Shown piece after piece: positions 1,462 through 62,549 of a stretch of DNA of 64,000 nt. The position numbers were made by a program, and so were the translations under genes. The DNA comes from Thermococcus stetteri (GTDB taxonomy: Archaea > Methanobacteriota_B > Thermococci > Thermococcales > Thermococcaceae): contig NZ_JAGGKB010000001.1 in the NCBI RefSeq assembly GCF_017873335.1, positions 434,001 to 498,000 of the forward strand. The letters run 5' to 3'. Position 1 is the first letter of the stretch. The number at the start of each line of letters is the position of its first letter. The notes under the pieces are model-generated. The model was not told the DNA's origin and made no database searches. It was given only the letters and a program-made list of their open reading frames with translations.

Positions 1462-1861
1462 CCTGCACAATAACTCTCCTGTGCCTTGGCCTCACGTCGA
1501 GCTCAGCGAAGAATATCTGCTGCCAGGTTCCCCTCACCAGCCTCCCGTCCACCACGGGGAAGCATTCGCTCGCACCAAGCAGGCTCGCCCTCAGGTGGCT
1601 GTGGGCGTTGTCGTCTATCCTGTCGTGGAGGTAGCCGGCCCCTTTGGGTACGAGCTCCTTCAGGAGTCTCTTGAAGTCCTCCAACAGGCCGCTTTCGTGC
1701 TCTATCGTTATTATCGCCCCCGTGGCACCGGGCACGAAAACGAGAACCTGTCCGTTCTGAACCCCGCTCTCTTTCACAATTCTCTCAACCTCAGCGGTTA
1801 TGTCCACAAGGTCTATCTCGCCCCTCGTCGAGAAGCGCAGTTCCTTGGCAAAAACCCTCAT
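1448..1861 (-). CDS. YjbQ family protein (UPF0047)
   Basis: The 137-residue protein matches the YjbQ/UPF0047 family along its whole length, including VPGATGAIITIEHE, the NAHSHLRASLLG motif with its conserved histidines, and a GTWQQIFFAELD strand. Family members form trimers with a buried metal site, and some show weak thiamine-phosphate synthase activity when tested. Its ATG overlaps the stop of the upstream HTH-ThiN gene as ATGA, so the two are translationally coupled. That partner supports a thiamine link, but the true substrate is not settled for the family. Confidence 0.85.
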   Translation of the reverse strand: MRVFAKELRFSTRGEIDLVDITAEVERIVKESGVQNGQVLVFVPGATGAIITIEHESGLLEDFKRLLKELVPKGAGYLHDRIDDNAHSHLRASLLGASECFPVVDGRLVRGTWQQIFFAELDVRPRHRRVIVQVMGE

Positions 1862-21935: not shown

Positions 21936-21952
21936 TATCACCAGAAGTGATA
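21936..21952 (-). promoter_or_regulatory. Thermococcales glycolytic motif at the CGTase-like gene
   Basis: TATCAC-CAGAA-GTGATA on the plus strand is a perfect palindrome of the Tgr/TrmBL1 operator. It lies downstream of the minus-strand TATA GCTTTTAAC (21963-21971), over the expected start site and ribosome site, the position known to give repression under gluconeogenic conditions. Confidence 0.85.
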
Positions 21953-21963
21953 AGAGAGGGCCG

Positions 21964-22635
21964 TTAAAAGCTTTGGGCTAGAGAAGAGATTTCATCGAGT
22001 GTAAACGAGAGTTCTTTCCCCATGATGCCCAAGTTTGCAGACTTTGAAACATAAAGCACAAACTTCTCACCGTCTGAGATCCAGTTAAGTACTGTGCTCG
22101 CGGTCTCTTCCAATAGGAGCAGAAGCTCGGGATATGAGGTTTCAACTACATCCCTGTTGATGAAGTAAAAGGCTATTCTCCTCCTGTCGCCTTCAAACAT
22201 CGCTATGTTTTTGACAAGCCTGATGGCACCCCTCCGTTCGAGGGACAGAAAGAGCTTATGAATCCCAAGAACATGGTTTAGAACGACACCATTGAGCGAT
22301 GCCTTCTCAAATATCCTGCTGTAGTAGCCTATGTCCAGGGAGTACCTGTCCACGTCCACCTCGCCGAAGACGTTACCACATTTTCTTGAGCCCCCGCCTA
22401 TTTTTATAACGGGCACCTCTTTGAAACCAGAGATGTCAAATCCAATGAACTCCAGTTTAGTCAGAGTCTCACAGAGAGTGTCGGCGACGTCGTCAATCAG
22501 CATGGGTCTGTTTTCTCTGTTTATGAATATGAGGTAAAACAACACCTCGGGCATTGACACCGTGTCGTACTCAATCAACACTGTCTCACCCGGGTAAAAT
22601 GCGGATAAAAACTCAGGAAGATCAACAATGGACAC
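21964..22635 (-). CDS. DUF257-like protein of Thermococcales
   Basis: About 223 residues, soluble alpha/beta. The layout (FYPGETVLIEYDTVSMPEVL, a mid strand VLNHVLGIHKLF, late GEKFVLYVSKSANLG) recalls RecA/KaiC-like proteins without a P-loop and fits the Thermococcales family DUF257, whose role is unknown. I prefer GTG 22635, 4 bases after GGTGAG, over the GTG at 22644. It stands just upstream of the CGTase-like gene but has its own promoter region. Confidence 0.6.
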   Translation of the reverse strand: MSIVDLPEFLSAFYPGETVLIEYDTVSMPEVLFYLIFINRENRPMLIDDVADTLCETLTKLEFIGFDISGFKEVPVIKIGGGSRKCGNVFGEVDVDRYSLDIGYYSRIFEKASLNGVVLNHVLGIHKLFLSLERRGAIRLVKNIAMFEGDRRRIAFYFINRDVVETSYPELLLLLEETASTVLNWISDGEKFVLYVSKSANLGIMGKELSFTLDEISSLAQSF

Positions 22636-30477: not shown

Positions 30478-31276
30478 CAGGGAGCTTTTGGAAAAAGCTT
30501 GACCAAAGAAACTTTGCTGGGCAAAGTTTCATCAAAGTTTGTGGTTCCTTCTAAAATTGCTTTTCTACGAGGATTTTCATGATACACAACTTAAAACTGA
30601 ATTTTTTTAAATTTTAGCCAACTGAAAAGGGGTTTTCAACGTCTTGATACCCTTCGGGCATCTATAGAAAAGTAAACTCACACAAAACAAAACCACTAAA
30701 TCTCAGAATTCACACTTGTACGGTGGGCTCCCTTAATGAAAATCCTTACAAAACTGCTTTTAAACAAGAACCACACACAAGCCTTTAGAAAAAGCTTCAC
30801 CAAAAGTTTGAATGTCTTCGTAAAATTGGCTGAGAAGGTAGATTCTCCTAGTGCACGAGCAGAGCAATGTGGGTTTCTCTTCTTTTAACGCCCTTCGGGC
30901 GTTATACTACGAGTAAACCCCTCTAAAACTGCTAATTGGAGCGAGAGAATCACTAAAGCCCAGCAATTTAACAAGGACATTCCACCTTTGATGAAACTTT
31001 TCTAGCAAGCTTTTGGAAAAAGCTTGACCTAAAGTATGCCTTTCTTGTTGAGCTTGCTCTTTGGTAAGTGTATGTTCTCCTAGAAGCAAGTTCACAGGGG
31101 TTTAGTTCTAAATCTCCCCGCTAATTATGATTTTGACTTTCTTTTTAGTGCTCTCCGAGCACTATACGGTGAGAAAAATCCTTTGAATTGGCCAATTGAA
31201 AGTAAACCCTCATAAAATGAGCGTGCTTAACAACGCATACCAACTTTCCGCCAGCGCTTTCGTAAGAAAGGGCTGA
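30478..31276. repeat. Three tandem palindromic elements downstream of tRNA-Trp
   Basis: This gene-free stretch holds three units: about 30478-30780, 30781-31007 and 31008-31276. Each has an imperfect left arm, a central 7-bp hairpin with a three-base loop (30646-30662, 30887-30903, 31147-31163) and a right arm that is the inverted form of the left. Two of the three left arms begin with AGCTTTTGGAAAAAGCTTGACC-like sequence and the other (30782) with a related form, and a box AGTAAAC(T/C)C follows the hairpin. In unit 1 the arm has its own hairpin, GAAACTTTGC-TGG-GCAAAGTTTC at 30508-30530. A fourth copy lies beside tRNA-Gln. Confidence 0.75.
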
Positions 31277-31278
31277 TG

Positions 31279-31418
31279 TGGTGGGGGCGCGGGGATTTGA
31301 ACCCCGGTCCGCGGGTTTCTCCGGGTCAGAGCTCCAAAGGCTCATCCCCTATCAGCAAACCCGCAAGTCCTCATACCTCTGGAGCCCGCGATGATGGACC
31401 AGGCTACACCACGCCCCC
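31279..31418 (-). tRNA. tRNA-Trp (CCA) with intron
   Basis: Minus strand. Acceptor GGGGGCG (31412-31418) pairs with CGCCCCC before the A discriminator (31282) and an encoded CCA (31279-31281). The anticodon stem GCGGG/CCCGC encloses C32-U33-CCA, reading UGG for tryptophan. An intron of about 61 bases splits the loop after position 37 or 38. Archaeal tRNA-Trp genes usually carry such an intron, cut by the splicing endonuclease. Confidence 0.95.
31317..31378 (-). ncRNA. C/D box guide RNA within the tRNA-Trp intron
   Basis: On the minus strand the intron has box C ATGAGGA (31368-31374), D' CTGA (31352-31355), C'-like GGATGAG and D CTGA (31326-31329). The guide before D (TTTGGAGCT) pairs with GCUCCA of the anticodon loop, placing C34 opposite the fifth base from D. 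The guide before D' (GCGGGTTTG) pairs with AAACCCGC, placing C39 at the fifth base. This is the known archaeal scheme in which the intron directs 2'-O-methylation of positions 34 and 39. Exact splice sites are approximate. Confidence 0.85.
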
Positions 31419-62091: not shown

Positions 62092-62143
62092 TGCTTCCAC
62101 CATTGGACATAATCTCCAACACCCTTTTATATGTTTGCCAGCA

Positions 62144-62470
62144 AGCTTTTGGAAAAAGCTTGACCAAGGAAACTTTGCAGAGCAAAGTTTCATCAAAGTT
62201 GATGGTTCTTTCTGAAATTACCTGTTCTACAAGGATTTTTCAAAGCACACAAGCAAGTATTAGTGAATTCCCTAAGTTTCGGCTTATCAAGAGGGAGTTT
62301 ATTTCACCTTGACGCCCGTAGGGCGTCGATTAAAAAGCAAACTCACAAAGAGCGAGCAAATAAAAATGGAATTCGCAATCTACGACAGCATTCAAAAGGA
62401 AAATCCTATCAGAACAGCATTTTAGTCAAGAACCACGAGCCTTGATCAAACTTCGCGCGGGCGAAGTTTG
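62144..62470. repeat. Fourth palindromic element, abutting tRNA-Gln
   Basis: The left arm (62144-62243) matches unit 1 of the array beside tRNA-Trp closely. It holds the hairpin GAAACTTTGC-AGA-GCAAAGTTTC (62169-62191). The centre has GACGCCC-GTA-GGGCGTC (62311-62327), a 7-bp stem. The right arm (62399-62470) inverts the left and ends in CAAACTTCGC-GCGG-GCGAAGTTTG (62447-62470), 3 bases from the tRNA. No gene lies in this gap. Confidence 0.75.
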
Positions 62471-62473
62471 TAT

Positions 62474-62549
62474 TGGTAGCCCCGCCGGGATTCGAACCCG
62501 GGTCGCGGGATCCAAAGTCCCGCATGCTTGGCCGCTACACCACGGGGCT
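62474..62549 (-). tRNA. tRNA-Gln (TTG)
   Basis: Acceptor AGCCCCG pairs with CGGGGCT, then discriminator A at 62477 and encoded CCA at 62474-62476. The stem CGGGA/TCCCG encloses CTTTGGA, giving anticodon TTG. The T arm CCGGGTTCGAATCCCGG is intact. No intron. Its 3' end touches a palindromic element. Confidence 0.95.

What the first reader, a model, noticed from the sequence alone, without database searches (positions are those of the whole stretch)
30478..31276. Tandem array of three long palindromic elements downstream of tRNA-Trp
The 800 gene-free bases hold three head-to-tail units of about 300, 230 and 265 bases. In each the right arm is an imperfect inverted copy of the left. Unit 1: 30543-30578 against 30738-30772; unit 2: GAATGTCTTCGTAAAATTGG against its inverse at 30955-30990; unit 3: GTATGC...TTGTT.AGC against its inverse near 31215-31250. 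Arm sequences differ between units 1, 2 and 3 while the inverted design stays, so the structure, not the sequence, is kept. This could be a non-autonomous transposon or a family of long-hairpin RNAs. I do not know a named family.
Basis: seen in the sequence. Interest (0 to 1): 0.75.

Follow-up and report, generated by a model that had tools for sequence, protein, structure and literature searches.

The report
Palindromic DNA arrays at tRNA ends
The 800 gene-free bases are three members of a large family of non-coding palindromic DNA elements, apparently undescribed, that sit at a fixed distance and with a nearly fixed end behind tRNA (and sometimes other small-RNA) genes throughout Thermococcus-like archaea, at the same places where these chromosomes are known to rearrange.

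Summary
Window 30483-31275 contains three tandem palindromic units; two are far above chance on their own, the third only by homology. They belong to a dispersed family in 59 of 75 near-complete Thermococcales genomes. Other copies follow 3'-half tRNA fragments or C/D-box sRNA genes. U2 and U3 always present the same end to the tRNA (22/22, 31/31). Unit number and family change at collinear loci. Each unit has short terminal palindromes that keep pairing while their sequence changes, and a dyad body with 6-9 bp inverted boxes about 30.5 bp apart. Mismatches show no G·U bias and body boxes barely covary within families, so selection looks DNA-level, not RNA-level. Best reading: a non-autonomous DNA element placed site-specifically at small-RNA 3' ends by an unidentified protein. 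No transposase, target duplication or clean empty site was found, so a host architectural role stays open. tRNA 3' sides are synteny breakpoints, but arrays were not shown to cause the breaks.

The parts
30483..30780 (+). Unit 1 (family U1): distal double terminal palindrome (AGCTTTTGGAAAAAGCT 30483-30499, GAAACTTTGCTGGGCAAAGTTTC 30508-30530), boxes GTGGTTC / GATTTTC / GAATTc / GAGTTT and their inverses, dyad near 30652
   Evidence: palindrome score 22 against shuffled maximum 15.4; 26 distinct family members aligned
30779..31006 (+). Unit 2 (family U2): terminal palindrome AAGCCTTTAGAAAAAGCTT (30779-30797), boxes GAATGTC / GATTCTC / GGGTTT and inverses, central hairpin AACGCCCTTCGGGCGTT (dyad near 30895), truncated tRNA-proximal palindrome GATGAAACTTTTCTAGC
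   Evidence: score 29; 22 distinct members
31007..31275 (+). Unit 3 (family U3): distal palindrome AAGCTTTTGGAAAAAGCTT (31007-31025), body with dyad near 31157, tRNA-proximal terminal palindrome CAGCGCTTTCGTAAGAAAGGGCTG (31252-31275)
   Evidence: family palindrome (weak in this copy, 14.5); proximal end type E3 found in 65 of 94 Thermococcales genomes
31276..31278 (.). 3-nt spacer between the tRNA CCA end and the unit
   Evidence: 3-4 nt spacing recurs at tRNA-Trp of many species; constant first-unit distance
31279..31418 (-). tRNA-Trp gene with intron; its 3' end is the anchor of the array
62139..62473 (+). Second element in the window, U1 family, between tRNA-Gln (62474-62549, minus) and its distal flank

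Best explanation
The array is three stacked copies of a non-coding, non-autonomous DNA element that is inserted (or exchanged) site-specifically at the 3' end of tRNA genes, and less often of C/D-box sRNA genes. Shown: fixed distance (units start 3-4 nt after CCA), fixed end toward the tRNA for two families, tandem stacking, turnover of unit number and family at collinear loci, terminal palindromes that keep pairing while their sequence changes, and a dyad-symmetric body with boxes about 30.5 bp (three DNA turns) apart. Inferred: a DNA-binding recombinase or transposase recognises the terminal palindromes and the phased boxes as a dimeric or multimeric complex and directs insertion to the small-RNA 3' end; newer units enter next to the tRNA and push older ones outward; selection acts on DNA, not on an RNA product.
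For: Dispersed copies in the own genome and in 59 of 75 near-complete Thermococcales genomes. 16 of 19 own clusters at a facing tRNA 3' end, although such 400-nt flanks are about 0.9% of the genome. First U3 units 22-23 nt from the tRNA in 20/20 and first U2 units 14-16 nt in 11/12, at many different tRNAs; polarity U2 22/22, U3 31/31, U1 20/23. Proximal end types E3 and R are preceded within 7 nt by CCA in 49/59 and 60/101 cases, the distal type SP in 6/78. At tRNA-Trp, different species carry different families at the same point, and a few carry none. Unit turnover between intact flanks: Met 1 v 4 units, Leu-Pro 4 v 2. Copies at 3'-half tRNA fragments and C/D-box sRNA genes. Terminal palindrome covariation. 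Phased boxes. No G-T over A-C asymmetry.
Against: No encoded or linked transposase or recombinase was found. No target-site duplication could be shown and no clean empty/filled pair between close strains was available (one genome per species). Copies are 65-87% alike, so none is evidently recent. Spread by recombination between tRNA loci could mimic insertion. Only one locus (Arg-gcg) directly supports proximal addition; at Met the distal junctions differ.
Confidence: 0.5

Rival explanations
1. The arrays are host DNA elements with an architectural role: phased boxes about 30.5 bp apart organise histones or another chromatin protein and insulate or terminate behind highly transcribed small-RNA genes.
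For: Box spacing matches the 30 bp wrapped per archaeal histone dimer (stated in the abstract of PMC10516927); wide conservation of position and polarity; presence also behind sRNA genes.
Against: More than half of the own tRNA genes have no element and one whole genus (g12) shows none. Unit number and family vary freely. Histones are not known to need 6-9 bp sequence boxes, and box sequence differs between families.
Confidence: 0.22
2. Palindromic repeats spread passively: integrase- or recombination-driven rearrangements with crossover at tRNA 3' parts shuffle whatever lies downstream, so arrays travel between tRNA genes without transposing.
For: tRNA genes are known inversion endpoints in Thermococcus (PMC5495485). 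Between the own genome and G021, 19 of 33 mapped tRNA 3' flanks are broken. The own Trp array is nearest to the G021 Leu-caa array, and the argE flank lies at tRNA-Pro in G021 but at tRNA-Trp here.
Against: Does not explain origin, constant spacing on tRNAs and sRNAs without shared sequence, terminal palindromes, phased boxes, or changes of unit number between intact flanks. Breakage is not clearly more frequent where the own genome has an element (10 of 17) than where it has none (9 of 16).
Confidence: 0.17
3. The units encode a family of long-hairpin RNAs, or structured tRNA trailers, transcribed with the tRNA.
For: Folds better than shuffles on both strands; covarying terminal palindromes lie directly behind the tRNA.
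Against: Body boxes show almost no compensatory change within families and no G-T excess over A-C: 20 v 30, 33 v 19, 35 v 41; terminal palindromes also lack a clear bias, E3 2 v 1 and R 6 v 6. Boxes are separated by more than 20 mostly unpaired bases. No Rfam match.
Confidence: 0.08

Closest known systems
MITEs (miniature inverted-repeat transposable elements)
   Same: Short, non-coding, dispersed, inverted repeats, no ORF, many copies
   Different: Whole unit is a dyad with phased boxes; fixed site behind small-RNA genes; no parent element or target duplication found
REP/REPIN and BIME palindromic repeats (RAYT / IS200-IS605 related)
   Same: Extragenic hairpin-ended repeats, clustered, structure kept while sequence varies
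   Different: Much longer units (230-300 bp), tRNA-anchored, no associated TnpA/RAYT gene seen next to the arrays
Integron cassette arrays and CRISPR arrays (as analogy only)
   Same: Tandem units with fixed polarity at a fixed end; integron attC sites are folded hairpins conserved in structure rather than sequence
   Different: No cassettes, spacers, integrase or cas genes in the arrays; proximal addition supported at one locus only
tRNA-targeting retroelements of Dictyostelium (TRE) and yeast (Ty1/Ty3)
   Same: Position-specific residence near tRNA genes
   Different: Those are autonomous retroelements with looser spacing; these are archaeal DNA palindromes without genes
Thermococcales tRNA-targeted integrative plasmids (pT26-2, pTN3/TKV)
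   Same: Use tRNA genes in the same organisms; tRNA genes are inversion endpoints (PMC5495485)
   Different: Attachment sites lie inside the tRNA gene and copy part of it; these elements begin 3-4 nt after it

Membership tests
MITE | terminal inverted repeats and no coding capacity | tested here: met
   Terminal palindromes and dyad body, no convincing ORF
MITE | target-site duplication | tested here: inconclusive
   Junctions read; no duplication visible, no clean empty site
MITE | shares ends with an autonomous transposon | tested here: inconclusive
   No match in plasmids or phages, no exact match of the conserved distal end in viral contigs, none noticed in the fetched loci; the search was limited and no transposase families were scanned
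REP/REPIN (IS200/IS605-derived) | short imperfect hairpin repeats in inverted pairs | tested here: met
   Terminal palindromes E3, R and SP
REP/REPIN (IS200/IS605-derived) | cognate RAYT/TnpA transposase in the genome | not tested
   No search for TnpA genes was made
Long-hairpin RNA family | compensatory base changes with one strand favouring G-U pairs | tested here: not met
   Body 3 of 121 strong pairs, no wobble bias; terminal palindromes covary but without wobble bias
Long-hairpin RNA family | stable transcript | not testable with these tools
   No RNA-seq data
Integrase att site of tRNA-integrating plasmids | overlaps and duplicates the tRNA 3' part | tested here: not met
   Element starts after CCA plus 3-4 nt with no tRNA copy at the distal junctions read
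Known Rfam RNA family | match at gathering threshold | tested here: not met
   Only tRNAs in the window; none in 13 element loci
Archaeal histone positioning element | phased occupancy by histones | not testable with these tools
   30.5 bp box spacing is suggestive only

The most novel reading that the evidence does not exclude
A new class of archaeal DNA element: a palindromic cassette with covarying terminal palindromes and 30.5-bp phased recognition boxes, loaded one after another onto the 3' ends of tRNA and sRNA genes by a dedicated protein, and acting as hot spots for the large inversions that scramble Thermococcus chromosomes.
Probability: 0.25. Interest if true: 0.88.

Novelty: new variant of a known kind. 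Interest (0 to 1): 0.72.

Why it matters
A repeat family present in most genomes of a model archaeal group, anchored within a few bases of tRNA genes, appears to have gone unnamed: the tool's open-licence library returned no description of it, although that library lacks most subscription papers. It offers a concrete handle on two questions: how a DNA element can recognise the 3' end of small-RNA genes irrespective of their sequence, and why Thermococcus chromosomes break at tRNA genes. The phased dyad also predicts a specific large DNA-protein complex that can be purified.

Tried and rejected
Long-hairpin RNA: rejected on the lack of covariation and wobble bias in the body. Known RNA family: no Rfam match. 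Plasmid or viral origin: no matches in plasmids or phages; two exact 17-mer hits in viral contigs were unrelated sequence; seven viral-contig hits to the E3 pattern were not examined; the conserved distal end had none. A genome-collection scan with a 17-mer returned Thermococcus and Thermococcaceae records but also many chance hits. A tRNA-fragment reading for all tRNA-less copies: true for L282 and L287, but L292 follows C/D-box sRNA genes and L284, L290, L291 and L293 remain unassigned. Elements as the cause of synteny breaks: presence in the own genome does not clearly raise the break rate. Literature searches found no description.

Full report
What was checked. A scan comparing left and right arms around every centre gives 22.0 for unit 1, 29.3 for unit 2 and 14.5 for unit 3; 40 shuffles of the same bases reached at most 15.4. 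Unit 3 is therefore weak in this copy, but its family is palindromic.

Family and range. The 807 bases match 61 places in the own genome at E<=10, about 31 of them at E<1e-3. In the order, 59 of 75 genomes at least 90% complete have matches at E<=0.001, including genera g1, g11, g13 and g14; eight g12 genomes have none. A pattern for one end type, CAGCCCTTN{2,14}GCGCTGGCGGAA, occurs in 65 of 94 genomes, with zero matches to the reversed-pattern control and zero in nine g12 genomes. Nothing matched in plasmid or phage records. Three body families (U1, U2, U3, with 26, 22 and 33 distinct members) were aligned; other species carry further families with the same ends and design.

The tRNA anchor. 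In the own genome about 20 of 46 tRNA genes have an element directly behind CCA (counted by eye from the printed flanks), and 16 of 19 element clusters face a tRNA 3' end within 400 nt. Two of the three exceptions are contig ends. Among loci chosen by similarity alone, the first U3 unit lies 22-23 nt from the tRNA in 20 of 20 cases, and the first U2 unit 14-16 nt in 11 of 12, at tRNAs for Ala, Arg, Gln, Ile, Leu, Lys, Met, Pro, Ser, Trp and Val (a few tRNA names there are the program's guesses for split or intron-bearing genes). U2 and U3 always turn the same end to the tRNA (22/22, 31/31); U1 does so in 20 of 23. The unit 1 copy in the window is one of the exceptions with respect to tRNA-Trp. 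The proximal end types E3 and R follow CCA within 7 nt in 49/59 and 60/101 cases, the distal type SP in 6/78. At tRNA-Trp of 23 species most carry an end 3-4 nt after CCA, but the family differs from species to species and a few have none. Of the copies away from full tRNAs, two follow 3'-half tRNA fragments (L282, L287) and one locus has units directly behind C/D-box sRNA genes, sR36 and an sR44-like match below its gathering score (L292); some remain unassigned. In a g14 genome 5 of 30 tRNA 3' flanks but 0 of 30 5' flanks hold strong palindromes; in a g12 genome none do.

Anatomy. Each unit has terminal palindromes of about 19-25 bp and a body that is symmetric about a central hairpin. In the family alignments the paired positions are not spread evenly but form boxes of 6-9 bp: U1 at columns 33, 64, 95 and 124; U2 at 15, 47 and 77; U3 at 45, 74 and 104. 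Pooled over 46 non-redundant palindromes, arm matches peak about 21.5, 51, 82 and 113 bp from the dyad. Power near 30.5 bp exceeded all 5000 circular-shift controls, narrowly (0.0930 against 0.0911); the 15-bp harmonic is stronger still. Caveats: the elements are related, so they are not independent, and a handful of the 46 are tRNA pairs or coding palindromes that only dilute the signal. The spacing is three turns of B-DNA and is also the 30 bp wrapped by an archaeal histone dimer (PMC10516927); this is a lead, not a test.

RNA or DNA. Body boxes show compensatory change in 3 of 121 strong pairs, and mismatches that would be wobble pairs on one strand or the other show no consistent bias: 20 v 30, 33 v 19, 35 v 41. 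The terminal palindromes do keep pairing while changing: in E3 the first inner pair is T-A in 14 and G-C in 8 distinct sequences, the second C-G in 14 and G-C in 4; R behaves alike; wobble counts are again balanced or too few (2 v 1, 6 v 6). This fits protein recognition of palindromes or extruded DNA hairpins better than an RNA product, though correction of one arm from the other during replication could also maintain them.

Turnover and rearrangement. With both flanks conserved, the Met locus has one unit here and four in G021, and Leu-tag/Pro-tgg has four against two. At Arg-gcg the distal junction is shared while the tRNA-proximal part differs, as expected if units are added next to the tRNA; at Met it is not shared. 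Between the two genomes 19 of 33 mapped tRNA 3' flanks are broken; for instance the argE flank of this array belongs to tRNA-Pro(cgg) in G021. Inversions at tRNA genes are known in Thermococcus and have been ascribed to the pTN3 integrase (PMC5495485); that paper's main text has no occurrence of 'palindrom'. Element presence in the own genome does not clearly raise the break rate (10 of 17 against 9 of 16; one of the 17 is a false positive of the label), although several of the broken loci without an element here carry one in G021. Cause and effect are open.

Verdict. A real, abundant and apparently unnamed family of palindromic DNA elements anchored to small-RNA 3' ends. I favour a non-autonomous, site-specific mobile element acted on by an unidentified DNA-binding protein (0.5), over a host architectural element (0.22), passive spread through tRNA-centred recombination (0.17) and RNA genes (0.08). 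Steps shown: family, anchor, spacing, polarity, turnover, anatomy. Steps inferred: insertion as such, the protein, proximal addition as the rule. Comparisons with MITEs, REPINs, integrons and tRNA-targeting retroelements rest on general knowledge except where a call or paper is cited.

Noticed in passing
G000:C4:19124-19197 and 21938-22011 (L279): Two copies of tRNA-Val(tac) 2.8 kb apart, both followed by elements, enclosing a 614-codon open frame; looks like a duplication or integration between them.
   Followed up: partly
own-genome contig ends: C1 end, C2 both ends, C3 start (L016, L018, L020, L021): Several contigs of the assembly end inside elements, so the draft assembly breaks at this repeat family.
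   Followed up: partly
L282 about 1659-1717 (minus strand), L287 about 708-774: 3'-half tRNA fragments with intact CCA followed by full element arrays, as expected if a plasmid integrated in the tRNA and split it from its array.
   Followed up: partly
L292:498-557 and 1352-1411: Elements directly behind C/D-box sRNA genes (sR36 and an sR44-like sRNA), facing each other across one region.
   Followed up: partly
L281:1522-1626, L286:594-698: tRNA gene with an intron of about 30 nt, called Ser(aga) by ARAGORN but with CAT in the loop, so probably elongator Met; it too carries a U1-type element.
   Followed up: no
L406-L412: Seven viral contigs match the E3 end pattern; not examined for real elements.
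   Followed up: no
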